A stretch of 64,000 nt of DNA from Myxococcales bacterium (GTDB taxonomy: Bacteria > Myxococcota > UBA796 > SXON01): positions 62,001 through 126,000 of the forward strand of contig SHYX01000005.1 of the NCBI GenBank assembly GCA_009692585.1. Reading direction: 5' to 3'. Below are positions 5,007 through 53,618 of the stretch, one piece after another. Every line of letters begins with the position of its first letter. Positions within the stretch are counted from its first letter, which is position 1. Below the pieces are notes generated by a model. It ran no database searches, was not told the DNA's origin, and saw only the letters and a list, made by a program, of their open reading frames with translations. Position numbers and translations under genes: made by a program.

Positions 5007-5813
5007 CGGAGCGAACAAGACGCCCGCGCCACCGCCTTCGCAACACCCGCCCGGATCCTCGTCCCCGGTGTCCCCGGTGTCTCCCATGTCTTTCGGCTCG
5101 GCTCTGGCCACCGTGACCTCGGGATCGACGGACCTGACCCACGCCAGGTCGCGCTCGACTAGCGCCGCAGCCGCCCCCCCCCCATCGCAACCACTGATAT
5201 AACTGAGTACCGCTACCACGGCGCTGCTACCGTCGTTCCGGAGGCGGAACACCGGCCCCCCCGAGTCGCCGAAGCAGGCGTTGCCCGAGGGGCCCCAGGT
5301 GTAGACCAACGCCGCGTCCACATCGAGAATCGGCACCTCGACGCGGCGGCGGGTGGGGTTGTCATTGGGGTCGAGATCGTCGACCGCGCCGTACCCGAAG
5401 AGGTGCACGGTCGCGTCGATCCAGGCCTCCGTCAGCTTCGTTCCGTCGAGCGCGACGACTTTTCCGTCATGCTCGGGAACCTCGAGCATCGCGAGGTCGT
5501 GGGCACTGGTGTCCGGGTCGAACGCGGGGTGGACGGTCGCTCCCAGGACCAGGACCGTCGTCGCGGTGGAGGCGCTGTCCAGGTCGTCCGCGGCGACGAC
5601 GTGGAGCCTGGCCACCGGGGTGCCGTCGGCGTCGAGCACGCAGTGGGCCGCAGTGAGGACCCATCGGGCCGAGACGCGGACGGCGCTGCACGTGCCTTGG
5701 GGGTCGCCGGCCTCTCCGCTCAAGAGGAGCAGCACCACCTCGTCCCGCTCGGGCTCCGGCTCGCCGCCGAAGATGGGAGGCGGCGCTCCGGCCAGGGCCA
5801 TGGACCAGATCAC
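4944..5813 (-). CDS. Secreted trypsin-like serine protease with C-terminal sorting-like tail
   Basis: A 289-residue S1-family protease. With the GTG start at 5813, which overlaps the upstream stop as GTGA, the triad falls at His57 (LTAAHC), Asp106 (AHDLAML) and Ser184 (CFGDSGGPV). The usual mature start (IFGGE, like IVGGx) comes at residue 14, so any signal and propeptide are unusually short; ATG at 5801 is an alternative start. After the catalytic domain come DTGDTGDE, CC and a hydrophobic stretch (GVLFAPLWLFAV) followed by Arg residues, a layout like MYXO-CTERM anchors. It is probably exported and held at the surface. The last 63 bp overlap the convergent membrane-protein gene. Confidence 0.85.
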   Translation of the reverse strand: MIWSMALAGAPPPIFGGEPEPERDEVVLLLLSGEAGDPQGTCSAVRVSARWVLTAAHCVLDADGTPVARLHVVAADDLDSASTATTVLVLGATVHPAFDPDTSAHDLAMLEVPEHDGKVVALDGTKLTEAWIDATVHLFGYGAVDDLDPNDNPTRRRVEVPILDVDAALVYTWGPSGNACFGDSGGPVFRLRNDGSSAVVAVLSYISGCDGGGAAAALVERDLAWVRSVDPEVTVARAEPKDMGDTGDTGDEDPGGCCEGGGAGVLFAPLWLFAVGRARGQAIQRQAAH

Positions 5814-6943
5814 GGGGTGCCCCCCAACCGCCCGTACAGCGCGAACTTCAGGTAACGACCCTCCGGATGGCCGATGGCGACGGGATGATCGAGCGGCTCT
5901 CCCGAACGATGAAGGGCCGCCCAGCTGCCCCCCACCCCCTCGCGAACGGCCTCCGCCCACCGCTCCCAGGTCAGCCGGCCCGAACAACTCGACGTCGCCA
6001 GCAGGTCGGTGGCGTAGGTGCTGACGTGCCGATGGAGGGTTCGATAGGCGTTGCGCGCGGCCTGGTCGGCCTGCTTGGCGTGGGTAAGGGAAGGGGGGTC
6101 GACGATCACCAGGTCGGCCGGGGTCCCAGGCCAGGAAAAAGCGTCCGCGGCCACGAACTCGTGCGCCGCCGGGTCGAGACCGTTGAGACGGAAGATCTCC
6201 TGCGCGTCCTCGATGGCGGCCGGTGCGATGTCCACGGAGGTGACGTGCGTAGCCCCGCCGAGCGCGGCCGCAACCGAAAAACCACCGTTATATGCAAATA
6301 AGTTCACCACCCGGCGGCCGGCGCTCCATCCGCGAACCAGGCGACGGTGCTCGCGTTGATCCAAAAAAAGACCGGTCTTCTGCCCTTCCCGCACCCGGAC
6401 CAGCAGTTTCATGCCGTGCTCGGAGACCACGATCGCCTCAGCGGGTTCCGGGCCGCGAAGGGTGTCTCCGCCTTCGCGATCGTCGACCTTGCCGACGCCG
6501 TAGCGTCGAAAAACGGTGCGGCAGCCCGTCAGCGGCATGAGCACGTCCACGATGGTGCCGAGGTGCCGCTCCCACGCCTTGCTGTAGAGCCGCACCACCA
6601 GGACCTCGCCGTAGCGGTCCACGACCAGCCCACCCAGCGCGTCCCCCTCCCCGTTGCAGACACGGAAGGTGTCGGTGGCGGGCCCGATGAGCTGGCGTCG
6701 CCGCCACGCCGCGGTCAACGCCGCCTTGAGGTGGTCGGGAATGTTGGTCGCCTTCCGGCTGAGCACCCGGACGGCGATGGCCCCCTCGTCAACGATTCCC
6801 CACGCGACCGGACGGCCCCGTCCGTCCACCAGCTCGACCGCGTCGCCGGTGGCGAGGCGACCGATCACCCCGTCGGGGTAGACCCACGGGTGCCCCCGGG
6901 CGACGGGGCCGACGGTGTCGGCGGTGAGGGGGAGGCGCTTCAT
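5810..6943 (-). CDS. RlmI-like class I SAM-dependent rRNA methyltransferase
   Basis: A 377-residue cytosolic enzyme with the three-part layout of the RlmI/RlmK family: an N-terminal PUA RNA-binding domain (residues 1-75, RGHPWVYPDGV), an EEHD-type central region (GDALGGLVVDRYGEVLVV), and a Rossmann methyltransferase domain with the SAM loop VVNLFAYNGGFSVAA and the catalytic-type motif DLVIVDPPSL. RlmI methylates C5 of a cytosine in 23S rRNA; the exact target here is inference. The ATG overlaps the stop of the amidotransferase gene (ATGA), and its own stop overlaps the protease GTG, so the three form one coupled unit. Confidence 0.85.
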   Translation of the reverse strand: MKRLPLTADTVGPVARGHPWVYPDGVIGRLATGDAVELVDGRGRPVAWGIVDEGAIAVRVLSRKATNIPDHLKAALTAAWRRRQLIGPATDTFRVCNGEGDALGGLVVDRYGEVLVVRLYSKAWERHLGTIVDVLMPLTGCRTVFRRYGVGKVDDREGGDTLRGPEPAEAIVVSEHGMKLLVRVREGQKTGLFLDQREHRRLVRGWSAGRRVVNLFAYNGGFSVAAALGGATHVTSVDIAPAAIEDAQEIFRLNGLDPAAHEFVAADAFSWPGTPADLVIVDPPSLTHAKQADQAARNAYRTLHRHVSTYATDLLATSSCSGRLTWERWAEAVREGVGGSWAALHRSGEPLDHPVAIGHPEGRYLKFALYGRLGGTP

Positions 6944-7527
6944 CGGAGGGACGCGAGGTAGCGCGGCACCACCGTGCCGTACACCCGTGCGGTGTTGGGG
7001 CCGAGGTGTGCCTCGGGGTGAAAAATCACGCCGACCACGCGGGGCGCGTAGCGGGCAGCGACGACATCCCCCTCGGGCCCGATCGCCAGGTGTGTCCCCT
7101 CCTGACCGAAGACGCCCCAGGAGCGGCTCTCGTAGGTGCCGGCCCCCGACAGGCCGGCCAGGAGCGGGTCCTCCTGCCGCAGAGCCAGCGGAAACTCGCC
7201 CTCCCGCGTCGTCGTCAGGCGACGTAGCTCGGAGCCCGCTGCGACTGCGAGCATCTCGAACCCGAAGCAGATGCCAAGCGTGGGAAGGTCGTGGCGGATG
7301 CGGCCACGGAGCGCCGCCAGGAGCGGCTCCCGCCAGCGCCCCGCTTCCATCGGTGACCCGTGGCCACCGCCCAAGAGCCACGGCGACCCATCCGAGGCGG
7401 GAAGGGAGTCTCCGCCTCGCACATTGACGCAGCGCGCGGTCCAACCCGCGGCAGCGGCGAGGGCAACGAGGGCCGCGGTGCCGCGGTTGGGTCGGCCATC
7501 GTTGAGGTCGAGCAGGTGGAGGGACAG
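6940..7527 (-). CDS. Class I glutamine amidotransferase-like protein, probable CTG start
   Basis: A GATase1-fold protein of about 195 residues with nucleophile Cys in LGICFG (near residue 87) and the His-Glu pair in FHPEAHLGPN near the C-terminus. A GTG at 7422 is the first standard start, but coding sequence clearly continues upstream: LHLLDLNDGRPNRG is a typical first beta-strand and loop for this family, and the frame stays open back to a stop at 7531-7533. No ATG, GTG or TTG exists in that stretch, so CTG at 7527 (or 7515) is the likely start. The amino-group acceptor is unknown. It precedes and overlaps the RlmI-like gene (ATGA). Confidence 0.65.
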   Translation of the reverse strand: MSLHLLDLNDGRPNRGTAALVALAAAAGWTARCVNVRGGDSLPASDGSPWLLGGGHGSPMEAGRWREPLLAALRGRIRHDLPTLGICFGFEMLAVAAGSELRRLTTTREGEFPLALRQEDPLLAGLSGAGTYESRSWGVFGQEGTHLAIGPEGDVVAARYAPRVVGVIFHPEAHLGPNTARVYGTVVPRYLASLR

Positions 7528-7531
7528 GTGC

Positions 7532-7537
7532 TATGCT
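7532..7537 (+). promoter_or_regulatory. -10-like hexamer TATGCT before the 7544 gene
   Basis: TATGCT is followed by six bases and then ATG at 7544, the same spacing seen before several other first genes in the window. The intergenic space between this gene and the divergent amidotransferase is only about 16 bp, so the promoter must lie inside the amidotransferase 5' end. Confidence 0.4.
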
Positions 7538-7543
7538 CGCGGG

Positions 7544-8818
7544 ATGGTGTTGGCGTGGCTGGTTCTGGGGTGCATCGAGTCCGGCGTGACGGCCACGGAG
7601 CGCGACGAGCCCGAGGTCCGCCCCCCCTACGATCCGACGACCCACGACGCCGACCACGACGGCTTCGTGGATGCCGAGGATTGTAAGCCCGACGACGTGA
7701 ATGTTCACCCCGACGGGCTGGAACGGTGCAACGGCCTGGACGACGACTGCGACGGGAAGGTCGACGAGGAGGACTACGACGCCGACGACGACGGGTTCGA
7801 CGATCAAGTCGCCTGCTACGGTCTTCCCGGCGAAATGGACTGCCGGGACGACGACGCCTCGGTTCATCCCGGTGCGGCCGAGACCTGCGATTACGTCGAC
7901 GAGGACTGCAACGGGGTGGTCGACGACGGGGACCTGGACGGCGACGGAGTGCTCACCTGTGACGATTGCGACGACCGCGACGCGTTCACCCGCCCCGGAG
8001 CGGCCGAGGCTTGCGACGCTCTCGACAATGACTGCGACGGGACGATCGACGACGGCTGGGACTTCGACGGGGACGGGTACAGCGAGTGTCAGGGGGACTG
8101 TGCGCCGGACGATGGCGAAGTGGGTCCGGGTGCCGACGAGGCGTGCGACGGCGTCGACAACGACTGTGACGGAGCGGTGGACGAAGACGATGACCTCGAC
8201 GCGGATGGCGTGCCCACCTGCGAGGGGGACTGTGATGACGCCGACGCCAGCGCGTTTCCCGGCGGGGAGGAGGTCTGCGACGGCGCGGACAACGATTGCG
8301 ACAGCGGCACCGACGAGGCGGTGGACGCCGACGGCGATGGCTACACGAGGTGTTTGGGCGACTGCGACGAAGCGAGCCCGGCGGCGTTCCCGGGGGGGGC
8401 CGAGGTCTGTGACGGGGTGGACAACGACTGCAACGGCTACACCGACGAGATCTACGCCTGCTACGGCTGCACCGCATCGAGCTCGTATGTGCTCTGCTCG
8501 ACCAGCACGACCTGGTCGCTGGCCGAAAACGCGTGCGAGGGCTTCGGCGGGGCGTTGGTCCGGCTCAGCAGCGCCGCCGAGAACGACGATGTCGCCACCC
8601 TCACCGCCCGGCCCACGTGGATTGGGGCGAACGACGTCGACACCGAGGGCCTTTGGGTGTGGCCCGATGGCTCTCCCCTCGGATTCGACAGCTGGGCCTC
8701 GGGGTATCCGACCAGCTCCGACGCGGCGGACTGCACCATCACCAACTACGGGGGTCGGCGAGGGGACTGGGTCGATGTCGACTGTTCCGGGTCGTACCCG
8801 TTCGCCTGCGAGCTGTGA
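7544..8818 (+). CDS. MopE-repeat lipoprotein with C-terminal C-type lectin domain
   Basis: A 424-residue protein. The N-terminus MVLAWLVLGC is an extremely short lipoprotein signal (lipobox LVLGC, Cys10). Residues about 30-305 contain seven MopE-type modules (CNGLDDDCDG, CDGVDNDCDG and so on, each followed by DxDGDG loops). Residues about 310-424 form a C-type lectin-like domain: CTASSSY, WSLAENACEGFGG, TWIGANDVDTEGLW, WPDG, a WxxGxP-type segment, DWVDVDC and PFACEL at the end. CTLDs bind sugars or proteins, often with calcium. The architecture suggests a calcium-rich stalk presenting a binding head at the surface, which is inference. No other start lies near the ATG in this frame. Confidence 0.85.
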   Translation: MVLAWLVLGCIESGVTATERDEPEVRPPYDPTTHDADHDGFVDAEDCKPDDVNVHPDGLERCNGLDDDCDGKVDEEDYDADDDGFDDQVACYGLPGEMDCRDDDASVHPGAAETCDYVDEDCNGVVDDGDLDGDGVLTCDDCDDRDAFTRPGAAEACDALDNDCDGTIDDGWDFDGDGYSECQGDCAPDDGEVGPGADEACDGVDNDCDGAVDEDDDLDADGVPTCEGDCDDADASAFPGGEEVCDGADNDCDSGTDEAVDADGDGYTRCLGDCDEASPAAFPGGAEVCDGVDNDCNGYTDEIYACYGCTASSSYVLCSTSTTWSLAENACEGFGGALVRLSSAAENDDVATLTARPTWIGANDVDTEGLWVWPDGSPLGFDSWASGYPTSSDAADCTITNYGGRRGDWVDVDCSGSYPFACEL

Positions 8819-8821
8819 GCG

Positions 8822-9499
8822 TCAGTAGTAGAAGTAGTAGTACTGGCGGGCGCCGTTCTGATTGGTGGCATAACGTAGGAAGTCCGCGGAATATCGGTCG
8901 CCCTGCACCCCGGTTGCGCTGCCGGCGAAATTGTATCCGTACAGGTACCAACCGAGGTACCGCTCGCCGGTGAGGTGGGCCCAGACGACCTCTTCGAGTT
9001 GGTACTCGGTGGCGCCGTACTCGTATGCGAACGCCTCGGTCCAGCCGAATCCGTCGACATAAGTGGTGAAGTAGAGCTCCTGATACGAAGTTTTGTCGAA
9101 CACGGTCGGGCCGTTGAAGGCGTCACACCAGTCGCCGGAGGTTCCGCCGCCGGTGACCCGCGTCGAGAACGACCACTCGCAGTCGGGGCAGCCGGGCGCA
9201 CCGGCGCCGACGCTCTCGTAGGTGGCGAAGATGTCGCAGATGAAGTCCTGTTCGCGGAGTCGAAAGGCTCCGAGTCCGCGGGTGGCGGTAAGGGTCTGAC
9301 GCTCCGGATCGAAGTCGACCGAGCCGTGCCAGGCCAAAAAGGCCGTCCCCGTGTCGGCGCCGTCGGGTTCGCGTTCCGGGTCCGGCGCCAGGGTGATGCC
9401 GGGGCCAAAAAGGTCGATGAGTTCGTCGGCGACGCAGCCCTGCAGAGCGACGAAGAGGGCGAGGTGCACGATCAGCCGAACTCCAGCAGCACGGTACAC
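8822..9499 (-). CDS. Putative lipoprotein of unknown function
   Basis: A protein of about 225 residues. The first start is GTG at 9499 (an Arg-containing n-region, then LIVHLALFVALQGC as h-region and lipobox); GTG at 9469 would give a shorter signal in the style of other lipoproteins here. The mature part has four clustered Cys (ICDIF, GCPDCEW, DWCDAF) and an extremely Tyr-rich C-terminus ending YYYFYY. No family is recognised. Its stop lies three bases from the stop of the lectin lipoprotein (convergent). Confidence 0.65.
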   Translation of the reverse strand: MYRAAGVRLIVHLALFVALQGCVADELIDLFGPGITLAPDPEREPDGADTGTAFLAWHGSVDFDPERQTLTATRGLGAFRLREQDFICDIFATYESVGAGAPGCPDCEWSFSTRVTGGGTSGDWCDAFNGPTVFDKTSYQELYFTTYVDGFGWTEAFAYEYGATEYQLEEVVWAHLTGERYLGWYLYGYNFAGSATGVQGDRYSADFLRYATNQNGARQYYYFYY

Positions 9500-9586
9500 C
9501 GGCGGGCCCGGCTACGCACCCTCAATTGGGCTTCCGCGCTGTCAGCGGAGCGCGGCATGGGGCATGCAGGCTAACGCGAGCCCGGC

Positions 9587-9592
9587 TAGAAT
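9587..9592 (+). promoter_or_regulatory. -10-like hexamer TAGAAT before the 9599 gene
   Basis: TAGAAT is followed by six bases and then ATG at 9599, predicting a leaderless transcript. The TAG is also an in-frame stop for the gene, so translation cannot start further upstream. No clear -35 is seen. Confidence 0.45.
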
Positions 9593-9598
9593 ACCGGG

Positions 9599-10213
9599 AT
9601 GTTCTGCTTCCTCTGGGCGTGCGCCACCGAAACCTGGACGGACGCGGCCGAGCCGGAGGCGCTCGCGCCCTTGGATGCACACGACCTCGAATCGCCCAGC
9701 GACGCCGGCGATCCCTATCCGGAGCGCTCGGCCATGGTCTCGGGTCGCGAGGACGAGTATGACTGGTCGGTGCTGCGAGGCTGGGTGAAGGCCGATGCTG
9801 CTGCGGTCTGGGAGGCGGTGATCGAGCCGGATGTGGGGGTGAACCGGCGCGACGTTGCGTCGTGGACCGTGGTCCCGCTCGAGGACGGCGTGGTGGACAG
9901 CTCCTACCTCGTCAACGAGGTGGTCGTGGAGCCGATCACCGTCGACTTCGATCTCACCTGGCGGCATGCCCACGCCGACGATCCGGCGGCTGGCAGCGTT
10001 TCGGTGTGGGAGAAGACGGCAGGAACCGAGTTCATCTCGCTCATGGCGGGCTCGGTGCTGTCTACCGGTCACGACGGCGTGGTCGATTTCCTGGTGGTAT
10101 TCCACCTCAAGACGGTCGACTCCGGCACGGAGAGGACCGAGCAGTTCGTCACCGATTTCTACGCTTCGGTCCTTGCGGCCGCCCACGGCGAGGCGCTGCC
10201 GACGTATGAATAG
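9599..10213 (+). CDS. Putative lipoprotein, weakly SRPBCC/START-like
   Basis: A 204-residue protein with a minimal signal, MFCFLWAC (lipobox Cys8). The start is fixed by an in-frame stop 12 bases upstream. After an acidic spacer, residues about 58-195 read like a helix-grip domain (WVKADAAAVWEAVIEPDVG, then alternating beta strands such as YLVNEVVVEPITVDFDLTWRH, and a final helix FVTDFYASVLAAAHG), similar in pattern to SRPBCC/START lipid-binding folds. That assignment is inference. It converges on and overlaps the 10149-10811 gene by 65 bp. Confidence 0.6.
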   Translation: MFCFLWACATETWTDAAEPEALAPLDAHDLESPSDAGDPYPERSAMVSGREDEYDWSVLRGWVKADAAAVWEAVIEPDVGVNRRDVASWTVVPLEDGVVDSSYLVNEVVVEPITVDFDLTWRHAHADDPAAGSVSVWEKTAGTEFISLMAGSVLSTGHDGVVDFLVVFHLKTVDSGTERTEQFVTDFYASVLAAAHGEALPTYE

Positions 10214-10811
10214 GGTCGGGGCGCTCGGCAGTCTGCGCGCCCAGGTAGATCATCACGCAGCGGCGCACGTAATAGCCGAGATAGCGAACAATTGCCCCTG
10301 GTCCGCCTCGAAAGCTGAGGCCCTGCGCCATGACGCCGCCGATGCCCATGGTGAAGACTCCCCGCAGTCGCGGTGACCCGACCGGCTCGGCCCCCTCCCA
10401 CACGTCGACCAACAGCGTGGTGGTGTCGGTCAGCACCGTGGGAAACCAACGCCGCCGGCGCACGTCCTTGACGCCGAGCAGCACGTAGCGCCGCCCCTTG
10501 GCCCCCCGGAGGTCCAGGCGGTAGCGCATTTCTAGCACCCCTGGGTCCGCGTCGACGAACAGCTCCAGGGAGCCGTCGTGGACGGCGATCGGGCCGGGCT
10601 CCAGGGCCGGGCACACCACGAGCCCGAAGGCGGGGCTCCGATGGCGGGGATCGCCGACCATCGCGTCGACGTCGGACGTCAGCACCGTGAGCGTGAAGCT
10701 GGCGTGGTCGCCGGACGTGCAGGCCGAGGCGCCCGCGGCGCGGTGTGAACGGTCGGACGCCGGCCCCAGCCAGCCGGCCATCGTCTCGGTGAATCGGACC
10801 TGTCCAGGCAT
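10149..10811 (-). CDS. Beta-rich accessory domain protein resembling those of cholesterol-oxidase-like GMC proteins
   Basis: A 220-residue soluble protein beginning QVRFTETMAGWLG. The pattern FTETMxG, a DPxHRSPAFG-type motif near residue 55, MRYRLDLRGAKGRRYVLLGVKDV and TDTTTLLVDVWEG resembles a domain I associate with GMC-type cholesterol-oxidase-like and alpha/beta-hydrolase proteins of actinobacteria and myxobacteria, where it often sits next to a hydrolase. The neighbouring alpha/beta hydrolase gene (10843, divergent, 31 bp away) fits that context. The family call rests on pattern memory only. The basic tail (RRGRPQGPKRRNR) lies in the overlap with the preceding lipoprotein gene. Confidence 0.5.
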   Translation of the reverse strand: MPGQVRFTETMAGWLGPASDRSHRAAGASACTSGDHASFTLTVLTSDVDAMVGDPRHRSPAFGLVVCPALEPGPIAVHDGSLELFVDADPGVLEMRYRLDLRGAKGRRYVLLGVKDVRRRRWFPTVLTDTTTLLVDVWEGAEPVGSPRLRGVFTMGIGGVMAQGLSFRGGPGAIVRYLGYYVRRCVMIYLGAQTAERPDPIHTSAAPRRGRPQGPKRRNR

Positions 10812-10842
10812 GGGCCGGTGGTTATCCCGGGCCGTGCGCGAA

Positions 10843-11682
10843 ATGACCTGGACGGTTCGGGGCCGGGTGCTGGCCGGGCTGCAATGGGGCGAGCCCGTTG
10901 GCCGGCCGATCGTGTTTCTCCACGGCTTCCTGGATCACGCTGGGGCGTGGTCGCGGGTCGCGGCCGGGCTCCCGGGTTGGCGGTTGGCCTATGACCACCG
11001 CGGGCACGGTCGCTCCGCCCACATCAGCGCTTCCGACGACGACGGCTTCGTGACGTACCACTTCGCTGAGTACCTGGCCGACCTCGATGGTCTGCTTGCC
11101 CAACTCGGCCCGGCGGTCCTGGTCGGTCACTCGATGGGGGGCACGATCGCAACGATGTACGCTGGCGTACGCCCCCAGCGGGTGTTGGCGGTCGTCACCG
11201 TGGACGGCCTCGGCCTCGCCGACGGCGCCGACGGCGCCGTCACCCGGATGGAGGAATTCCTCGACGGGGTCGGCCGCCTTCCCGTCAACAGACGCTTCGT
11301 CTCGATCGATGAGGCGGCGGCGCGCCTGCGACACACCCACCCGGCGCTGGACGACGCCTGGAGCCTGGAGTTGGCCGCGCGGAGCCTGCGCCCACTCGAC
11401 GGCGGGTACGCCTGGAGTTGGGACGCGCGACACCGCCTGCGCAGTCCGGTTCCCTACCGGCACGATCACCACATTCGTTTCTTACGCCGGATCCGCTGTC
11501 CGGTGCTGTCGGTGCATCCCCAACGCAGCCCGTTTCAGGACCTTGACGTCGCCGCGCTCGAAGCACAGATTGCGGCGCTCCAGATCATCGTGATCGAGAA
11601 TTGTGGGCACATGGTCCATCTGGACGCTCCGGCGCGGCTCAGCGAGGGCATCGTCTCCTTCCTCGGATCGCTGCCGATTTGA
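10843..11682 (+). CDS. Alpha/beta hydrolase
   Basis: A 279-residue enzyme of the alpha/beta-hydrolase fold: oxyanion-hole HGFLDHAGAW (residues about 28-37), nucleophile elbow GHSMGG near residue 95, an acid residue in the VHPQRSPFQDLD region and catalytic His in NCGHMVHLD close to the end. The length is typical for the family. The start is taken at ATG 10843 because conserved sequence begins right after it (TVRGRVLAGLQWGE); the ATG at 10810 would add 11 residues. The natural substrate is unknown. It is divergent from the beta-rich protein and lies just upstream of the promoter of the CoA cluster. Confidence 0.8.
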   Translation: MTWTVRGRVLAGLQWGEPVGRPIVFLHGFLDHAGAWSRVAAGLPGWRLAYDHRGHGRSAHISASDDDGFVTYHFAEYLADLDGLLAQLGPAVLVGHSMGGTIATMYAGVRPQRVLAVVTVDGLGLADGADGAVTRMEEFLDGVGRLPVNRRFVSIDEAAARLRHTHPALDDAWSLELAARSLRPLDGGYAWSWDARHRLRSPVPYRHDHHIRFLRRIRCPVLSVHPQRSPFQDLDVAALEAQIAALQIIVIENCGHMVHLDAPARLSEGIVSFLGSLPI

Positions 11683-11715
11683 GCGTCGCCCGTCGGGTCA
11701 GGGGGCGTCGGCGCC

Positions 11716-11744
11716 TTGACAGAAGGGCCCAAACGCCGCATAAG
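11716..11744 (+). promoter_or_regulatory. Sigma70-type promoter of the CoA-thioester cluster
   Basis: TTGACA at 11716-11721, a 17-bp spacer, then CATAAG at 11739-11744. Transcription would start near 11751, just before a GGAG (11753-11756) that is spaced correctly for the ATG at 11764. This would drive the overlapping gene series from 11764 to about 17895. Confidence 0.55.
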
Positions 11745-11763
11745 GGGCGGCCGGAGCGGCCTC

Positions 11764-12510
11764 ATGTCCAAGCGTCGTCACGTCGTAATCACTGGTGGGG
11801 GCCGCGGCATCGGGGCCGAAATCGCCCGCCGCTTTGCCTCTTTGGGGGACCGCATCACGGTACTGGCGCGGACGCGGGAGGAGGTCGAGAAGATCGCCGA
11901 CGAGGTCGGGGGCTACGGCGTTCGCTGTGACGTGGGCGAACCCGCCAGCGTCGAGGCCGCCTTCATGGCCGCGGGCCCGGTCGACATCCTCATCAACAAC
12001 GCCGGTGTGGCCCGGTCGTCGCCGGTGCTCAAGACCGATGTCCGCGTCTGGGAGGAACACCTCAAGGTCAACCTCACCGGCTCGTTCTTGTGCGCGCTCA
12101 AGGTGCTTCCCGGCATGGCCAGCCGTGGCAACGGGCGCATCATCAACATCGCCAGCGTCGCCGGCCTCAAGGGCTACCCCTACCTCGCCGCCTACTGCGC
12201 CTCCAAGCACGGGCTGATCGGGCTCACCCGCGCGCTCGCGGTCGAGTACGCCGAGAAGGGGGTGACGGTCAACGCCATCTGCCCCGGGTACGTCGATTCG
12301 CCGCTGCTCACCCACTCCATCACCAACATCGTGGACAAGACCGGTCGCGATCATGAAGAGGTTCGCCAGGAGCTCGCCGATCGCAGCCCCCAGCACCGGT
12401 TCCTCGATGCCGCCGAGATCGCGGCGACCTGCGTCTTTCTCGCGAGCGAGGAAGCGCGCGGCATCAACGGGCAGGCGTTGTCGATCTGCGGCGGCGAGAT
12501 GAACGTCTGA
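11764..12510 (+). CDS. Short-chain dehydrogenase/reductase
   Basis: A 248-residue NAD(P)-dependent SDR: cofactor loop TGGGRGIG (residues 9-16), NNAG motif, catalytic Ser in NIASVAG, YCASK for Tyr and Lys, and ICPGYVDSPLL after it. The ATG is preceded by GGAG. In clusters of this composition (SDR, RidA, crotonase, acyl-CoA dehydrogenase, CoA ligase) the SDR is thought to oxidise a 3-hydroxyacyl-CoA intermediate of ring-cleaved aminobenzoyl-CoA; this role is inference. The stop overlaps the RidA start (TGATG). Confidence 0.85.
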   Translation: MSKRRHVVITGGGRGIGAEIARRFASLGDRITVLARTREEVEKIADEVGGYGVRCDVGEPASVEAAFMAAGPVDILINNAGVARSSPVLKTDVRVWEEHLKVNLTGSFLCALKVLPGMASRGNGRIINIASVAGLKGYPYLAAYCASKHGLIGLTRALAVEYAEKGVTVNAICPGYVDSPLLTHSITNIVDKTGRDHEEVRQELADRSPQHRFLDAAEIAATCVFLASEEARGINGQALSICGGEMNV

Positions 12511-12902
12511 TGGACGGTCCGGTGCAGCCGGTGGGCTGGCCCCGGCCGCGCGGGTACAGCAACGGGTATCGGCTCGACAACGTCCTGTTCGTGTCCGGGC
12601 AGGTGGCCTGGGACGCGGAAGGGCGGATCGTGGGGGACGGTGACTTCGCGGCGCAGTTCCGCCAGGCCCTCGCCAACGTGTGTGCCGTGCTCGACGCGGC
12701 GGGAGTCGCCCGCGAGCGCGTCGGCCGGGTGACGGTGTACGTCGTCGAAAAAGAATCGTACACCGCGATGATGCGCGAGGTTGGTGCGATCTGGCGGGAC
12801 CTGTTCGGCCGGCACTATCCCGCGATGAGCCTGGTGCAGGTGGCCGCGCTCCTCGAGCCGGGTGCCCTGGTGGAGATCGAGGCAACGGCGGTCGTCCTCT
12901 AA
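12510..12902 (+). CDS. RidA/YjgF-family enamine/imine deaminase
   Basis: A 130-residue protein of the RidA (YjgF/YER057c/UK114) family, with the usual length and pattern: GYSNGYRLDNVLFVSGQVAWD near the start, a central FRQALANVCAVLDAAG helix and VQVAALLEPGALVEIEATAVV at the end. The family hydrolyses reactive enamines or imines to ketones and ammonia. The family's active-site Arg (IRV..AS..P..R..V type) is not obvious: the corresponding block reads LVQVAALLEPGALVEIEA, so this is probably not the housekeeping RidA subgroup. Placement between SDR and crotonase fits ammonia release in a 2-aminobenzoyl-CoA-like pathway. Confidence 0.8.
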   Translation: MDGPVQPVGWPRPRGYSNGYRLDNVLFVSGQVAWDAEGRIVGDGDFAAQFRQALANVCAVLDAAGVARERVGRVTVYVVEKESYTAMMREVGAIWRDLFGRHYPAMSLVQVAALLEPGALVEIEATAVVL

Positions 12903-18983: not shown

Positions 18984-20060
18984 ATGCAGAGCGGGGTCCT
19001 CCTCCTCGAGGACGGTCGACGCTTCGTAGGAGAGGCCTTCGGGGCCGTCGGAACCCGTGTCGGGGAGATCGTGTTCAACACGGCGATGAGCGGATACCAG
19101 GAGGTGCTCACCGACCCGAGCTACTGCGAGCAGATCGTGGTGATGACCACGTCGCACGTAGGGAACTACGGCGTGAACGAGGCGGACGCGGAATCGCGGC
19201 GGGTGTGGGCCTCGGGTTTTGTCGCGCGCAGCTTCTCGCGGATGACCAGCAGCCACCGAGCCACCGGAGGGCTGGGTAGCTACCTGGAGGGCGCGGCCGT
19301 ACCGGGTGTGCACGGCATCGACACCCGCGCGCTGGTCCGGCACATCCGCAGCGAGGGGGCGATGCGCGCCGCGATCAGCACCGACGGCCTCCCCGAGGGC
19401 GCGTTGCACGAACGCATCCAGGCGTGGCCCGGGATGTCGGGGCGGGCGCTCGCCGCCGAGGTCAGCTGCTCCGCACCGTACGTCTTTTCGGAGGGCACCG
19501 GCGGCCCGCGCGTCTCGGTGTTGGACGCGGGGTGCAAGACGAACCTGCTTCGACTCTTCGCCTCCCAGGGGTGCGCGGTGCGCGTGTTCCCCGCCAACAC
19601 CCCCGCCGACGTCTACTCTGCCGAATGTGACGCGGTCTTTCTGTCCAACGGTCCTGGTGATCCGGCGGCGCTGCCCGGGATGATCGCCGAGCTTCGCACG
19701 GTGCTGGGGAAGGTCCCGCTGCTCGGGGTCTGCCTCGGCCACCAGCTCCTCGGGCTCGCCCTGGGTGCCGACACCTTCAAGCTTCGGTTCGGGCACCGCG
19801 GCGCCAATCACCCGGTGCGGGACATCGAGACCGGCAGGGTCGAGATCACCTCGCAGAACCATGGCTTTTGCGTTGACTACGCCGGAGTCGAGCGTGCTGG
19901 TGGCCGGGTCACCCATGTCAACCTCAACGATGGCACCCTCGAGGGCTTCGTCCAGCAGGACCTCGGGGTGATCGCCGTGCAGTTCCATCCTGAAGCGGCC
20001 CCGGGGCCGCACGACTCGCGACACCTGCTGATCGACCGTTTCCTCCGCCTGGCTCGGTAG
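18984..20060 (+). CDS. carA: Carbamoyl-phosphate synthase small (glutaminase) subunit
   Basis: A 358-residue CarA. The N-terminal domain has [21 protein letters not shown] and [12 protein letters not shown]; the class I amidotransferase domain has [15 protein letters not shown], nucleophile Cys in [10 protein letters not shown] and the His/Glu pair in [12 protein letters not shown]. It releases ammonia from glutamine for CarB. ATG at 18984 is preferred over GTG 18981 because AGGGG (18974-18978) is then better spaced. The gene ends four bases before carB. Carbamoyl phosphate feeds arginine and pyrimidine synthesis. Confidence 0.95.
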
Positions 20061-20064
20061 CCGC

Positions 20065-23000
20065 ATGCCCCAGCGCACCGACATCCACAGCATCCTCATC
20101 ATCGGCTCGGGCCCAATCGTCATCGGGCAGGCGTGCGAGTTCGACTACTCGGGCACCCAGGCGTGCAAGGCGCTCAAGGCGCTGGGCTACCGCGTCATCC
20201 TGATCAACAGCAACCCGGCTACGATCATGACGGATCCTGGCGTGGCGGACGCAACGTACATCGAACCGCTGACGATCGAGTTCGTCGAGCGCGTCATCGT
20301 CCGCGAGAAGCCCGACGCCATCCTGCCCACGGTTGGCGGGCAGACCGGGCTCAACCTCGCCATGGAGTTGCACGCGACCGGCGCGCTCGCACGGCACGGG
20401 GTGGAGCTCATCGGGGCCAAGCCCGCCGCCATCGCCCTCGCCGAGGATCGCGAGTTGTTCAAGAGGGCGATGGAGGAGATCGGCGCGGAGTGCGCTCGGG
20501 CTGAGGTTGCCACCACCGTCGCCGAGGCCGAAGCGATCGCGAGGACCATCGGCATGCCGGCGGTGATCCGGCCCAGCTACACGCTCGGTGGCGCCGGCGG
20601 CGGCATCGCCTACAACATGGACGAGCTGCGGGAGATCGTGGCCGAGGGGCTGGACCTCTCGCCCACGCGTCAGGTGCTCGTCGAGGAGAGTGTCCTCGGT
20701 TGGAAGGAGTTCGAGCTCGAGGTCATCCGCGACCTCGCCGACAACGTCGTGATCATCTGCTCCATCGAAAACGTCGACCCGATGGGCGTCCACACCGGTG
20801 ACAGCATCACCGTCGCCCCCGCGCAGACGCTGACCGACGCCGAGTACCAGGCGCTCCGGGACCTCAGCATCGCGATCATCCGCAAGATTGGCGTCGAAAC
20901 CGGCGGCAGCAACGTCCAGTTCGCGGTCAGCCCGACCGACGGCTCGATCCGGGTCATCGAAATGAACCCGCGGGTGTCGCGCTCGTCGGCGCTCGCCAGT
21001 AAGGCGACGGGCTTCCCGATCGCCAAGATCGCCGCCCAACTGGCGGTGGGCCTCACCCTCGACGAGCTCCGGAACGACATCACCCGGGTCACGCCGGCGT
21101 GCTTCGAGCCGGCGATCGACTACACGATCGTGAAGATCCCACGCTGGAACTTCGAGAAATTCTCCGGCGCCAGCCGCCGCCTCGGCACCAGCATGAAATC
21201 GGTTGGCGAGGTCATGGGCATCGGGCGAACGATCGACGAAGCGCTCGGCAAGGCGATCGCATCGTTGGAGGGTGGTTTTTCTGAGGCGGGGCGGTGGACG
21301 GACGCGGAGCTGCGGGAGAAGGCGGCGGCCGCGACTCCGGACCGGCTGCCGGCGATCCTGGAGTCCCTGCGGCGGGGCGTCACCGTGGAGGACATCCATG
21401 CGGCCACCCACATCGACCCCTGGTTCCTGGATCGTTTCGCGGCGATGATCGAGGCGGAGGCGGCCCTCGCTGCGTGCCTGCGCGGCGCTCCGGCGCTGAC
21501 GGTGGAAACGTTGCGCGCCGCCAAACGTGCGGGCCTGTCCGACGCGCGGATCGCGGCCATCGCCGGGCTGACCGAACGTGCCGTGACCGATCGTCGTGAG
21601 CAGATGGGGCTTGATCCCGTCTACAAGCGGGTGGACACCTGTGCTGCGGAGTTCGAGTCGCACACGCCGTACCTCTACAGCGCCTACGAAGACGAGGACG
21701 AGTCCGGCTCGAGCGCCACCGAGCGCGTGGTCATCCTCGGCAACGGTCCCAATCGGATCGGCCAGGGCTTGGAGTTCGACTATGCGTGTTGTCACGCTGC
21801 TTTTGCCGTGCGCGAGATGGGGTTGACGTCGGTGATGGTCAACTGCAACCCCGAGACGGTCTCGACCGACTACGACACCAGCGACAAGCTCTACTTCGAA
21901 CCGGTCACCGCCGAACACGTCCGCGGCGTCGTGCGTCGCGAGAAGCCGCGGGGCACGATCCTCCAGTTCGGCGGCCAGACGCCGCTGAAGCTGAGTCATC
22001 GTGTCGGCGAGGTGCTGGGCACCTCGCCGGAGGCCATCGACATCTGCGAGGATCGGCGCCGATTCAACGGGCTGTTGCTTGAGCTGGGCATCCGCCAGCC
22101 CGACGGCGAGATGGTCAACACCAAGGAGGAGTCCTTCGCGGCGGCGGCGCGGCTGGGCTTCCCGTTGCTGGTGCGGCCGTCCTACGTGCTGGGCGGTCGC
22201 GCGATGAAGATCTGCTTCGACGACTTCGACCTGAAGGCGGCCGTCGACGAGGCGATCCTGGTCTCCGACAATCATCCGCTGCTCATCGACCGTTTCCTCG
22301 AGGGGGCGGTGGAATACGACGTCGACGCGCTCTGCGACCTTGAACACGTGCACATCTGCGGAGTGATGGAGCACATCGAAGAAGCCGGAATCCACTCCGG
22401 TGACAGCACCACGGTGTTCCCGGCTCTGCAGCTCAGCGCCGCCAACCGCCTCGAGATGGAGGACATCGTCCGCCGGATCGCGCTCCGCGTCGGTGTCCTG
22501 GGCCTGGTGAACGTCCAGTTCGCCGTCCAGAACGGCGTGGTCTTCGTCATCGAGGTCAACCCTCGCGCCAGCCGTACCGTGCCCTACCTCGCCAAGGCCA
22601 CCGGTCATCCGTATGCCGCGATCGCGACCAAGCTGGTCCTGGGCATGAAGCTCGGCGACTTCGGGCCGATGTTGCCCTGGGGCGGCGGCTATTCCTTCGT
22701 GAAGGCGCCGGTCTTTCCGTGGCGACGTTTCCCCGGGGTGGACACCGTACTCGGCCCCGAGATGCGCTCCACAGGTGAGGTGATGGGCGTGGGCAGAAGC
22801 TTCGGGGAGGCCTACGCCAAGGCCCTGATCGCGGCGGGGCTTTCCCTCCCTCAGTCGGGTGGGGTGTTCATGAGCTTCCGGGACGCGGACAAGTCCGAGG
22901 CGCCGCCGATCGGCCGGGCGCTCGTGGAGATGGGCTTCCGGCTCTACGCGACCCGTGGGACCGCCGCGGTCTTGTCGGGGGCGGGGATCGCCGTGGAGCG

Positions 23001-23247
23001 GGTGTGGAAGGTCCGCGAGGGGCGCCCGGACGTGGTCGATCGCATCAAGAACGGTGACATCCAGCTCATCATCAACACCCCGCTCGGCAAGAAGGCGCAG
23101 TACGACGAGGCGGCGATGCGCCTCGCGGGCTTACGCTACGGCGTGCCGTGCGTGGCCAATCTCCAAGCCGCCAAGGCGTTGCCGGCGGCGCTCGCGGCGC
23201 TCAAGCGAGGCGAGATGGGCGTGATCAAGCTTCAGGACCTGGCGTAG
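20065..23247 (+). CDS. carB: Carbamoyl-phosphate synthase large subunit
   Basis: A 1060-residue CarB of full usual length. Two homologous ATP-grasp halves are visible: the first with [33 protein letters not shown] and [20 protein letters not shown]; the second with [31 protein letters not shown] and [20 protein letters not shown]. The C-terminal MGS-like allosteric domain begins near residue 930 ([14 protein letters not shown]). It makes carbamoyl phosphate from ammonia, bicarbonate and two ATP. Every motif expected for an active enzyme is present. Confidence 0.97.
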
Positions 23248-23273
23248 TCATACCGCTGGCAGCTGACGCTGGG

Positions 23274-24731
23274 CTACCGCCTCCCCCCCTCGGCCGCGGC
23301 CCCCGCGCCGGCGATCTTCCCGCCGAGGATCACCGCCGTCAGCGACCCGGTGAACCCGTAGTCGCCGACGATGGAGCCGCCGAGCATTCCGGTCAACTCG
23401 CCGCTGGCCCACAGGCCGGGGAGCGGCGTGCCGGAAGCCGAGAGGACGCGCCCTTCGGTGTCCACCTGGATGCCGCCGAAGTTCTTGACCACGCTGATGC
23501 CGACGGGAACGGCGTAGAAGGGCCCTCTGCGCACGTCGAACGCGGGTTCTGCGTCGGGGTCCCGGTAGGCATCGACGGTGAGACCGTCGGCCGCGCTGTT
23601 CCAGGCGTCGATGGTGTCGGCCAGCGCGCCGGCGGGCTGCTCGAGGTCCAGGGCCAGAGCGGAGAGGTCGGCTGCCGTCGACCCGAGGCCCGCGTCCACG
23701 AGCTCGTCGACGGACCAGGTCTGGGTGTCGTCGGCCGGGTCGAAGAACACCGCGGCGCGCAGTCCGGCGTCCCCGATCAGCCAGACGTGGCCTCCGTCCT
23801 GCTCGGCGCGGGTGCGGCCGAGCCGGAAGCTGTTCACGCTCCACTCGTCGCCGAAGCGCTGCCCAAGCCGATTGACCCAGGGATAGCGGGTGAGCGCGGC
23901 GGAGACCAACTCGGACCGCGCTCCCAGCGGCGACGGTACGGCGTGGGCGTAGAACCCGATGGCAGCAGCATTCTCACTGGCGGCGCCGTGGGCTTCGAGC
24001 AGCGCCAGGCCGCCACCGTCGGCGCCGACTCCGGCCCCGATCAACAGCTGGTCATCAGGTAGGTCGGGGTACAGCGCCTGCACGCGAGCCAGGTCTCGGA
24101 GGAAGCCTCCCGTCGCGACCACGATCGCATCGGCGCCGATGGTGTGCTCGCCGCCCTGGTCGCTCCACCTCACCCCGACCACGCGGTCCCCGTCGACAAC
24201 CAGGCCATCCGCGGTCGCCCCGAGGCGCAGGCTTCCCGGCTGGACGGTGCTCAGCAGCGCGGCGACCACCCCGGCGCCCTGGGTGGTGGCGGGATGCACC
24301 CTCGCCGTGGGCCCACTCGATGGATCAGGCCTGACCTCCGACCATGTCAGTCCTCCCGCCGCCAGCCAATCGTGGACCTCGGCGACGTTCCGTGCCGCGA
24401 AGATCTCAAACCAGGGGTCCGCCGGATCGCCACCGGTGATGTCGGCCCACTCCTCGGTGAGGATCGCGGGCGAGTCCACGATCCCCGCCGCCTCCTGTTC
24501 AGGCGTGCCCGAGAACATCATCAGCCCTCCTGCCGCCAGCGCCGCGCCGCCCGGCTGTGCCTCGCGCTCGAGCACCACCACGCTGACGCCGGCCTCGGCC
24601 GCGGTCGAGGCGGCGGCCAGCCCAGCGGGACCCCCGCCGATGACCACGACGTCGACCTCCTCGTCGAACTCCGGCGAGTCGGGTCGCGGAGGCTCCGGGT
24701 CCGCGGTGCAGGCAACGAGCAGCAACATCAC
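23274..24731 (-). CDS. FAD-dependent (fumarate-reductase-like) flavoprotein predicted to be a lipoprotein
   Basis: About 485 residues. A very short signal with lipobox LLVACTA is followed by a linker and then the FAD Rossmann motif VVVIGGGPAGLAAASTAAEAG, ATGGF-type and GADGGGLAL segments, and a C-terminal block with NFGGIQVDTEGRVL and GLWASGELTG, the hallmarks of the flavocytochrome c/fumarate reductase flavoprotein family. There is no heme domain. Residues typical of true fumarate reductases (the HPT- and R-containing substrate loops) are not evident, so the substrate is open. GTG 24731 sits five bases after a -10 element; ATG 24728 is the alternative. It is divergent from the histidine phosphatase lipoprotein. 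Confidence 0.75.
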   Translation of the reverse strand: MMLLLVACTADPEPPRPDSPEFDEEVDVVVIGGGPAGLAAASTAAEAGVSVVVLEREAQPGGAALAAGGLMMFSGTPEQEAAGIVDSPAILTEEWADITGGDPADPWFEIFAARNVAEVHDWLAAGGLTWSEVRPDPSSGPTARVHPATTQGAGVVAALLSTVQPGSLRLGATADGLVVDGDRVVGVRWSDQGGEHTIGADAIVVATGGFLRDLARVQALYPDLPDDQLLIGAGVGADGGGLALLEAHGAASENAAAIGFYAHAVPSPLGARSELVSAALTRYPWVNRLGQRFGDEWSVNSFRLGRTRAEQDGGHVWLIGDAGLRAAVFFDPADDTQTWSVDELVDAGLGSTAADLSALALDLEQPAGALADTIDAWNSAADGLTVDAYRDPDAEPAFDVRRGPFYAVPVGISVVKNFGGIQVDTEGRVLSASGTPLPGLWASGELTGMLGGSIVGDYGFTGSLTAVILGGKIAGAGAAAEGGRR

Positions 24732-51568: not shown

Positions 51569-52177
<609 letters not shown>

Positions 52178-52335: not shown

Positions 52336-52782
52336 TTGCCGGTGGAACCCGGACGCTTCCCCACGCTCGATCCGGCCCGGTGCGTGCCGTGCGGCCTCTG
52401 CGAGGTCGCCTGCGTGTCGGCACGCTTCAGCCTCGCCGGCCTGCGGCCCGAGGACCCGATCGTGTTGGAGCAACGACGGCTTCGGGTGCGGGACCAGGCG
52501 GGCGTTCCGAAGCTGGACGTCTGCGTCCACTGCGCCGAGCGGCCCTGCGTCGCCGTCTGCCCCCATCACGCGCTGGTGGTCTTTCCCAACGGTCGCGTCG
52601 ACCTCGTCGCGGATCGGTGCACCGGGTGTGGTCAGTGCATCGCCGCCTGCGACTATGGCGCGATCCGGCGCGTCAGTCGGCTGGACGTCGCCCAGAAGTG
52701 CGACGGCTGCGCGCCGCTCGGGCATCTCCCGGCCTGTATCCCCGCCTGTCCGTCGGGGGCGCTTTCGCTGGTGGTGCGATAA
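52336..52782 (+). CDS. Polyferredoxin-type electron-transfer protein with four 4Fe-4S motifs
   Basis: A 148-residue protein (TTG 52336, or GTG 52342). Four Cys clusters are arranged as in HycB/DmsB/AOR-associated iron-sulfur subunits: CVPCGLCEVACV (residues 15-26), CVHCAERPCVAVCP (near 63), CTGCGQCIAACDYGAI (near 95) and CDGCAPLGHLPACIPACPSGAL (given in part; near 120). It would pass electrons to or from a partner oxidoreductase in the cytosol. The only neighbour in the same direction is the CcmP-like shell protein nine bases downstream; no catalytic partner is in the window. Confidence 0.85.
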   Translation: MPVEPGRFPTLDPARCVPCGLCEVACVSARFSLAGLRPEDPIVLEQRRLRVRDQAGVPKLDVCVHCAERPCVAVCPHHALVVFPNGRVDLVADRCTGCGQCIAACDYGAIRRVSRLDVAQKCDGCAPLGHLPACIPACPSGALSLVVR

Positions 52783-52791
52783 CGAGGCGCC

Positions 52792-53436
52792 ATGGCCATC
52801 GAGCTTCGTTGCTTCACCTACATCGACGTCCTCCAGTCGCAGACGGCCTCGTTCCTGGCCACGGTCAGCCGCGGGTACATGCCGCTGGAACGGCAGGCGG
52901 CCGTCTTTTTCGAGGTGGCGCCGGGCATGGACATCAACGTCGTCACCGACATTGCGCTCAAGCGCACCTCCTGCACGCCTGGAATGCAGATCGTGGAGCG
53001 GCAGTTCGGCTGTCTTCAGCTCCAGCACGATGACCAGGGACAGATCCGCGCCGCGGGCGAGGCCGTGCTGGAGACCCTGGGCCTCAAAGAGAGCGATCGC
53101 CTGCGCCCCCGACTGGTCAGCGCCCAGACCATCACCGGCGTCCACGGCTACCACGCCCAGCTGACCAACCGCATGCGGCACGGCAACTTCCTGGACGAAG
53201 GGCGCACGCTGTACGTGCTGGAGTGCCACCCGGCCGGCTATGCGCTGATTGCTGCGAACGAGGCCGAGAAAGCCGCGCACGTCGACATCCTCGAGGTCGT
53301 GTCGTTCGGAGCCTTCGGCCGCCTGTACCTGGGCGGTGGCGAAGAAGAGATCAAGTGCGCCGCGGCGGCCGCGATCGCGGTGCTGGAGTCGATCGATGGC
53401 CGGCCCAACGAAGGACCGGGCGCCAGCTTCTACTAG
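52792..53436 (+). CDS. Tandem-domain bacterial microcompartment shell protein, CcmP-like
   Basis: A 214-residue protein. From memory it can be laid against cyanobacterial CcmP without gaps through the first 70 residues: both begin xxELRxxxYxDxLQ, keep EVAPGMDIN (EISPGIEIN) and DIALK, and share Glu69-Arg70, the pair that gates the CcmP pore (IVERQFG here). The first BMC domain is about residues 20-105, the second about 115-205, with AANEAEKAAHVDILEV and FGAFGRLYLGG strongly conserved. Such proteins form stacked pseudohexameric trimers in shells. No BMC-H, BMC-P, Rubisco or other shell gene lies in the window. It is in an operon with the ferredoxin. Confidence 0.8.
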   Translation: MAIELRCFTYIDVLQSQTASFLATVSRGYMPLERQAAVFFEVAPGMDINVVTDIALKRTSCTPGMQIVERQFGCLQLQHDDQGQIRAAGEAVLETLGLKESDRLRPRLVSAQTITGVHGYHAQLTNRMRHGNFLDEGRTLYVLECHPAGYALIAANEAEKAAHVDILEVVSFGAFGRLYLGGGEEEIKCAAAAAIAVLESIDGRPNEGPGASFY

Positions 53437-53452: not shown

Positions 53453-53618
53453 GCGTAGGAGTCCGCTCCCATGGCCATGAAACTCGCGCCCTGGAAACTC
53501 GCGCCCTGGGGGACCACGCGGAGGGGGGGAGAGCGGCGCCATTTTCGCGTTAGCAACGCGAAAATGGCCGTAGGGAACGCCGCGATAGGGGGGGAACGCG
53601 AAGGGGTTCCCCCGTTGA
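53453..53618 (+). repeat. Repeated element, copy B, non-coding gap after the shell-protein gene
   Basis: Starts with CGCTCCCATGGCCATGAAAC, which closely matches the left end of copy C. It contains an internal duplication (AACTCGCGCCCTGG twice), a strong hairpin (separate entry) and ends in TTCCCCCGTTG. No open frame with protein-like content is seen. Confidence 0.5.
53538..53568. terminator. Perfect 14-bp inverted repeat with 3-base loop
   Basis: GCCATTTTCGCGTT, loop AGC, AACGCGAAAATGGC: a perfect stem. It lies between the convergent shell-protein and lipoprotein genes. It has no T-run directly after it on either strand, so it may be a bidirectional terminator of the non-U-tract kind, or part of a REP-like element. 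Confidence 0.5.

What the first reader, a model, noticed from the sequence alone, without database searches (positions are those of the whole stretch)
52336..53436. Stand-alone CcmP-like microcompartment shell protein in an operon with a four-cluster ferredoxin
The 214-residue protein at 52792 has two BMC domains and, laid against cyanobacterial CcmP from memory, needs no gap over the first 70 residues and keeps the pore-gating Glu69-Arg70. CcmP is known from beta-carboxysome shells, yet this organism looks like a heterotrophic Myxococcota, and no Rubisco, carbonic anhydrase, BMC-H or BMC-P gene is in the 64 kb. Its only operon partner is a small protein with four 4Fe-4S motifs. A gated shell trimer paired with an electron carrier suggests either an undescribed redox compartment with components encoded elsewhere, or a shell protein used outside a compartment, for example as an electron conduit. 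The pairing is seen in the sequence; the function is inference.
Basis: partly seen in the sequence, partly recalled or inferred. Interest (0 to 1): 0.9.

Follow-up and report, generated by a model that had tools for sequence, protein, structure and literature searches.

The report
Satellite gate gene for a microcompartment
The gene encodes a gated pore tile of a bacterial protein-shelled organelle whose other parts are encoded elsewhere in related genomes, and in one group of bacteria it comes with a small iron-sulfur protein whose role in the organelle is unproven.

Summary
In detail: window 52792-53436 encodes a BMC-Tdp (stacked-trimer type) shell protein, 9 bases behind a 148-residue protein with four 4Fe-4S motifs. 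The reading as a CcmP in an undescribed or absent compartment does not. The best solved match is Haliangium ochraceum HO-3341, not CcmP, and the NCBIfam CcmP cut-off is missed. All 31 relative genomes that I searched have pentamer genes; 28 of 31 have a strong hexamer match. In the two nearest relatives a Haliangium-type locus (BMC-Tdp, BMC-H, BMC-P, aldehyde dehydrogenase, BMC-Ts, two BMC-P, class II aldolase) lies about 42-47 kb away on the same contig, some 30 kb past the window's edge if synteny holds. So this is a satellite gene of a known kind of microcompartment of unknown substrate. The new part is the ferredoxin: directly upstream in 15 of 64 informative satellite loci, all in one clade. 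In a five-genome subclade it lies beside cyanophycin genes instead. The same clade has altered residues in the gate hairpin (Q71, C74, Q76, Q78), though a clustering test was weak. Electron transfer at this gate is possible but untested; a cyanophycin-linked or incidental role fits about as well.

The parts
52336..52782 (+). Four-cluster [4Fe-4S] ferredoxin-like protein, 148 aa, TTG start (HydN/HycB-like, a small family of its own)
   Evidence: 16 invariant Cys in 24 sequences; Fer4 Pfam families; 56 close homologues, then a gap from 51% to 38% identity; Foldseek to four-cluster Fe-S subunits, model pLDDT 74
52783..52791 (+). 9-base gap between ferredoxin stop and shell-gene ATG (co-transcription inferred)
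   Evidence: in the 15 relatives 12-22 or 58-70 bases as measured from tblastn ends
52792..53436 (+). BMC-Tdp shell protein, 214 aa, HO-3341-type satellite gate
   Evidence: phmmer 5v76 268 bits; tree; gating E69-R70
52990..53025 (+). Codons 67-78: gate hairpin with E69-R70 and the clade-typical residues Q71, C74, Q76, Q78
   Evidence: hairpin assignment from CcmP structures, PMC5853799 passages
53539..53567 (.). Perfect 13-bp inverted repeat with 3-base loop downstream of the pair (terminator-like; function inferred)
   Evidence: no exact copy of the core pattern in the 154 loci held

Best explanation
The 214-residue protein is a gated BMC-Tdp tile (HO-3341 type) of a Haliangium-type metabolosome whose main locus is encoded elsewhere in the chromosome. 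Shown, in relatives: the main locus and its content. Inferred from conserved residues and published work on CcmP and CsoS1D: two stacked trimers whose E69-R70 pore passes bulky charged metabolites or cofactors. Inferred for the compartment: an aldehyde made by the aldolase is oxidised inside by the CoA-acylating aldehyde dehydrogenase, which carries an N-terminal helix like an encapsulation peptide; as no alcohol dehydrogenase was found in the main locus looked at and no PduL-type phosphotransacylase in 16 of 17 genomes, NADH and acyl-CoA must leave or be renewed through gates. The ferredoxin is a clade-specific neighbour placed directly upstream; most likely a cytosolic four-cluster electron carrier used under the same conditions, with contact with the gate unproven.
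For: Full-length match to 5v76, HO-3341 (268 bits), over CcmP (216 bits). Satellites plus HO-3341 form one side of a branch and main-locus proteins plus CcmP the other, SH-aLRT 94. BMC-P in 31 of 31 and strong BMC-H in 28 of 31 relative genomes. Main locus annotated; its BMC-Tdp matches 6n07_A and HO-5816 equally (298 bits) before HO-3341 (226); its BMC-H is nearest HO-5815 apart from an engineered tandem fusion. Main locus on the same contig as the pair in G001 and G002. The five transport residues named for CsoS1D (PMC13316943, passages) map to R6, E69, R70, R127, R177, all present (the mapping is mine, R127 also). PF06130 absent from 16 of 17 genomes. No alcohol dehydrogenase among 14 L098 genes scanned. 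No Rubisco match in 20 of 21 genomes.
Against: The window's own genome is not held, so its main locus is inferred by synteny. The substrate of HO-type compartments is unknown. G015, G021 and G026 gave no strong BMC-H match (draft genomes). That this tile enters a native shell was not tested. Pairing does not show contact: in 5 of the 20 genomes where both genes can be placed they lie apart.
Confidence: 0.82

Rival explanations
1. The ferredoxin belongs with cyanophycin or nitrogen metabolism, and its place before the shell gene is incidental or only co-regulatory.
For: In G009, G010, G011, G012 and G027 it lies next to cyanophycinase and cyanophycin synthetase genes. Cyanophycin synthetase is in 21 of 21 ferredoxin genomes and in 2 of 9 satellite genomes without the ferredoxin.
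Against: In the other 16 ferredoxin genomes the synthetase lies on another contig (contig ends limit this). By parsimony on the tree the cyanophycin placement is the derived one, in one subclade. I recall no need of cyanophycinase for electrons.
Confidence: 0.3
2. Redox gate: the ferredoxin docks on the altered gate tile and moves electrons into or out of the compartment, with C74 of each protomer as a possible cluster or docking site.
For: Ferredoxin orthologue in 21 of 73 relatives, all 21 among the 38 with a satellite match over 340 bits, 0 of the 35 others (Fisher 2.9e-8). In those 21 loci Q71 21/21 and C74 21/21, against 2/45 and 4/45 of the other satellites; Q76 and Q78 20/21 against 2/45 and 1/45. 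PduS/PduT is a proposed precedent for Fe-S electron transfer at a shell (PMC6325248, PMC4207490, passages).
Against: All carriers are one clade, so the association counts as about one event. The hairpin ranks 8 of 202 windows by divergence, and permuted maxima reach it in 2453 of 5000. C74 is four residues past R70 and pairs with residue 67 in CcmP; its distance from the axis is unknown. No encapsulation-like helix on the ferredoxin termini (six sequences). L019, L022, L024 and L044 have C74 without an adjacent ferredoxin.
Confidence: 0.15
3. Shell protein used outside any compartment.
For: No other shell gene found in the 64 kb.
Against: 31 of 31 relative genomes have pentamer genes.
Confidence: 0.03
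4. True CcmP of a beta-carboxysome.
For: NCBIfam CcmP model 253.6 bits over residues 1-206.
Against: Cut-off 340 missed; HO-3341 is closer; CcmP's pocket His18 is Thr; no Rubisco match in 20 of 21 genomes, while G035 has an 84-bit match in two pieces; the main locus is a metabolosome.
Confidence: 0.01

Closest known systems
Haliangium ochraceum BMC-T HO-3341 (PDB 5v76)
   Same: Full-length homology (55% identity in the Foldseek alignment), gating residues, same side of the tree; relatives carry a Haliangium-type main locus
   Different: Q71, C74, Q76, Q78 in the hairpin; Cys7; a ferredoxin gene directly upstream. HO-3341's own neighbours were not seen; its two nearest relatives found, L153 and L154, show no two-motif Fe-S ORF within about 1.5 kb
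Beta-carboxysome CcmP (PDB 5lsr, 4ht5)
   Same: Permuted tandem BMC protein with the E69-R70 gate
   Different: His18 pocket residue absent; NCBIfam cut-off missed; other side of the tree; no Rubisco match in 20 of 21 relatives
HO-type BMC loci and satellite loci of the 2021 catalog (PMC8217296, passages)
   Same: Shell gene away from a main locus with BMC-P triplet and AldDH; CcmP-like BMC-Tdp named there for HO loci
   Different: The word ferredoxin does not occur in that paper's main text; its supplements were not seen
PduS/PduT redox pair
   Same: A trimeric shell protein linked with an Fe-S protein
   Different: PduT binds its own cluster through a pore Cys in a non-permuted trimer; the main BMC-Ts of 10 of 10 ferredoxin-clade loci looked at has Glu there. 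No PduS homologue was sought

Membership tests
BMC-Tdp shell protein | Two permuted BMC domains over about 205 residues | tested here: met
   phmmer to 9 PDB sequences of this type over both halves; Foldseek agrees with a poor model
BMC-Tdp shell protein | Gating Glu-Arg pair | tested here: met
   E69, R70 in the window and in 76 of 76 relatives
BMC-Tdp shell protein | Stacked double trimer with chamber | not testable with these tools
   No multimer prediction; monomer model pLDDT 53. HO T3 is said to stack (PMC11924220, passages)
Beta-carboxysome CcmP | NCBIfam NF053796 score over 340 | tested here: not met
   253.6
Beta-carboxysome CcmP | Pocket His18 | tested here: not met
   Thr18 in the window and in 21 of 21 clade members
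Beta-carboxysome CcmP | Rubisco in the genome | tested here: not met
   Relatives only: no match in 20 of 21; G035 has an 84-bit two-piece match
Satellite locus of a BMC | Main locus with BMC-H and BMC-P elsewhere in the genome | tested here: met
   Relatives only: 31 of 31 BMC-P, 28 of 31 strong BMC-H; not testable in the window's own genome
HO-type BMC | BMC-P triplet, AldDH, BMC-Tdp, BMC-H, BMC-Ts, aldolase | tested here: met
   Relatives; at least three BMC-P in 27 of 31
HO-type BMC | Typing with the catalog's own shell-protein HMMs | not tested
   HMMs not held
PduT-like Fe-S shell protein | Cluster-ligating Cys at the pore | tested here: inconclusive
   C74 lies on the gate hairpin side, distance to the axis unknown

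The most novel reading that the evidence does not exclude
One clade of these bacteria has turned a gated microcompartment tile into a redox gate: a four-cluster ferredoxin, expressed with it, docks on a remodelled gate hairpin (Q71, C74, Q76, Q78) and drains electrons from an aldehyde-oxidising compartment that seems to lack its own means of renewing NAD and CoA.
Probability: 0.13. Interest if true: 0.8.

Novelty: new variant of a known kind. Interest (0 to 1): 0.45.

Why it matters
HO-type shells are the structural model of microcompartments, yet their substrate and redox balance are unknown (PMC8217296, PMC11924220, passages). A gate tile with its own clade-specific ferredoxin gives a testable lead on how a compartment with an aldehyde dehydrogenase but no evident alcohol dehydrogenase or PduL could deal with reducing power. 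If true it would be a second design for Fe-S proteins at a shell besides PduS/PduT and GrpU.

Tried and rejected
Use outside a compartment: not supported. Carboxysome: rejected. Cys7 or Cys61 as a ferredoxin-linked trait: rejected, they occur in 14 and 15 of the 45 other satellites; by alignment with BMC-H I place C61 away from the pore (inference).

Tungsten aldehyde oxidoreductase as the ferredoxin's partner: suggested by Foldseek (9mqx, 6x6u, 8c0z), rejected, PF01314 is in 1 of 30 genomes (G009).

PduT-type conduit in the main shell: not found. Glu stands at the cluster position in 10 of 10 ferredoxin-clade loci; of all 20 loci only L109 (Thermoleophilia) has Cys.

Clustering of clade changes in the gate hairpin: suggestive only. 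Columns 78, 71, 76, 74 rank first to fourth by one measure; by divergence from 17 sister sequences they rank 2, 5, 1 and 10, the 13-residue hairpin window ranks 8 of 202 rotations, and permuted maxima reach it in 2453 of 5000.

Structure prediction of the shell protein gave pLDDT 53, so no geometric claim rests on it. Dropped before counts: G073 (41% identity) from the 22 of 73 genomes, as another ferredoxin family, also the weaker second matches there and; 10 main-locus copies from the 76 loci; L061 and L066 (incomplete) from the tree.

Literature: searches (1 paper; 10 papers) listed no title or abstract with a ferredoxin and shell-tile pair of this kind; from these I opened passages of PMC6325248 only. 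One search gave none and four papers. Only open-licence PMC papers are held, and no supplements were read.

Full report
What is there. Two genes on the plus strand, 52336-52782 (TTG start, 148 aa) and 52792-53436 (ATG, 214 aa), are separated by 9 bases and flanked by minus-strand genes. The first has 16 cysteines invariant in 24 aligned sequences, in four 4Fe-4S motifs. The second is a tandem BMC protein. PF00936 sees only its second half, below cut-off, which is usual for this type (PMC4207490, passages); the full length aligns with nine PDB sequences of BMC-Tdp proteins.

What the shell protein is. The best solved relative is 5v76 (268 bits), titled Haliangium ochraceum BMC-T HO-3341, ahead of CcmP (216) and HO-5816 (203). 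The NCBIfam CcmP model scores 253.6 against a cut-off of 340. In a tree of 98 sequences, 65 satellite proteins (window included) plus HO-3341 form one side of a branch and 31 main-locus proteins plus CcmP the other (SH-aLRT 94; quick method; CcmP and HO-3341 sit on long branches, so their exact places are unsure). CcmP's pocket His18 (PMC5853799, passages) is Thr18 here. E69-R70 is in 76 of 76 relatives. I equate HO-3341 with the T3 of PMC11924220 from recall.

The rest of the compartment. The window's genome is not held. One scan of GTDB contigs gave 76 loci; 10 of them (L065, L067-L074, L076) are main-locus copies judged by their neighbours, leaving 66 satellites. In the 31 genomes that I chose from the 76 loci, BMC-P is in 31 (three or more matches in 27) and a BMC-H match over 100 bits in 28 (not in G015, G021, G026). 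The main locus reads BMC-Tdp, BMC-H, BMC-P, aldehyde dehydrogenase, BMC-Ts, BMC-P, BMC-P, then a class II aldolase. Its BMC-Tdp is nearest HO-5816 (tied with 6n07_A) and its BMC-H nearest HO-5815 apart from an engineered fusion. In G002 the pair is at C4:107667-108757 and the shell genes at 150256-154039; in G001 the pair is at C16:70409-71506 and the shell genes at 19562-23398. The window's right end aligns with about C4:118500 of G002, so the main locus would begin about 30 kb beyond it. Of eight main-locus proteins only the BMC-Tdp matches the window, at the tile itself.

The ferredoxin. It is directly upstream in 15 of 76 loci, that is 15 of the 64 satellite loci with at least 450 bases of upstream sequence (L010 and L045 have less). 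With the window, these 15, five loci whose genomes have the gene elsewhere, and L010 make one clade of 22 rows, SH-aLRT 96. L010's genome (G032) has the ferredoxin cut off at a contig end. Across 73 relatives of G002 the orthologue is in 21 (59-93% identity; a 22nd match, G073 at 41%, I set aside). All 21 are among the 38 with a satellite match over 340 bits (my threshold), none among the 35 others. Fisher gives 2.9e-8, but shared ancestry makes that far too strong. The protein search, which needs shared 5-residue words, found 56 close members, then a gap from 51% to 38% identity. Thirteen of the 56 share a longest-contig length with one of the 120 shell proteins listed, which suggests shared contigs (my reading of the two tables).

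Against the pairing. In G009, G010, G011, G012 and G027 the ferredoxin lies beside cyanophycinase and cyanophycin synthetase, and the tile is elsewhere. Cyanophycin synthetase is in 21 of 21 ferredoxin genomes and in 2 of 9 satellite genomes without it. So the ferredoxin tracks cyanophycin genes about as well as it tracks the tile, and its partner is open. Its nearest solved relatives are Fe-S subunits of formate dehydrogenase and related enzymes by sequence and of tungsten aldehyde oxidoreductases by predicted fold, but PF01314 is in only 1 of 30 genomes.

The gate. In the 21 clade loci Q71 and C74 are in 21 of 21, Q76 and Q78 in 20 of 21; in the other 45 satellites they are in 2, 4, 2 and 1. 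L023, the first branch of the clade in the tree, has Q71 and C74 but still E76 and H78. In CcmP residues 66-72 form the moving hairpin, and 67 pairs with 74 (PMC5853799, passages). A clustering test was weak: the hairpin ranks 8 of 202, and permuted maxima reach it in 2453 of 5000. This is a lead, not a result.

How it probably works. The gate passes bulky charged compounds; the five residues named for CsoS1D transport (PMC13316943, passages) are all present in my mapping (R6, E69, R70, R127, R177). The aldehyde dehydrogenase starts with a helix like an encapsulation peptide, computed for L098 and judged by eye in the other loci, L109 unclear; the termini of six ferredoxins show none. PduL-type phosphotransacylase is absent from 16 of 17 genomes, present in G014, and no alcohol dehydrogenase is among 14 genes scanned in and around the main locus of L098; it was not sought genome-wide. 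PMC4207490 (passages) already noted metabolosomes of this kind, Haliangium among them, without AlcDH and/or phosphotransacylase. Passage of NADH or acyl-CoA through BMC-Tdp gates follows as inference.

What is known. The 2021 catalog (PMC8217296, passages) describes HO loci of enigmatic function, satellite loci, and CcmP-like BMC-Tdp in HO loci. A 2025 paper lists T3 as one of five HO shell subunits and says that T2 and T3 stack (PMC11924220, passages). I found no mention of a ferredoxin paired with such a tile in the listings or in the passages I opened (open-licence papers only, no supplements). Verdict: a known kind of satellite shell gene with a clade-limited ferredoxin neighbour that I could not find described.

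Noticed in passing
G001:C37:26903-29774 (L144), G002:C2:100475-103043 (L145), G009:C60:62633-65213 (L146): A second satellite: EutB next to a weak BMC gene (EutL-like by context), as in the 'EUT modules' of PMC8217296; EutB in 15 of 17 genomes.
   Followed up: partly
L109 (G029, Thermoleophilia) 4588-12834: Two BMC-Tdp genes in one locus, and a BMC-Ts with Cys at the PduT cluster position.
   Followed up: partly
L136 3580-9456; also L135, L137-L139: Cyanophycinase, cyanophycin synthetase and, in L136-L139, a second gene like the C-terminal half of the synthetase; the ferredoxin is divergent from the cyanophycinase.
   Followed up: partly
L019-L022, L027, L029, L030, L036, L075: In sister genomes the satellite tile is followed on the same strand by a thiolase-family gene and often by a 3-hydroxyacyl-CoA dehydrogenase (one of each scanned).
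   Followed up: partly
L034, L043, L056, L058-L060, L064: In a more distant group the gene after the satellite tile looks like elongation factor P (from its sequence start, recalled).
   Followed up: no
window 53539-53567: Perfect inverted repeat CCATTTTCGCGTT-AGC-AACGCGAAAATGG after the pair, once in the window (0 expected); no exact core match in 154 loci.
   Followed up: partly
L010, L013, L014: MAG records titled Klebsiella pneumoniae or Bifidobacterium breve carry these loci, whose relatives are Deltaproteobacteria/Myxococcota MAGs, so the record names look wrong.
   Followed up: no
G001:C118:5175-5683: Two further BMC-P matches apart from the main locus in G001.
   Followed up: no
window 52025-52070 (minus): Repeated Gly-Asp-Thr codons in the neighbouring small lipoprotein-like gene at 51569-52177.
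   Followed up: no
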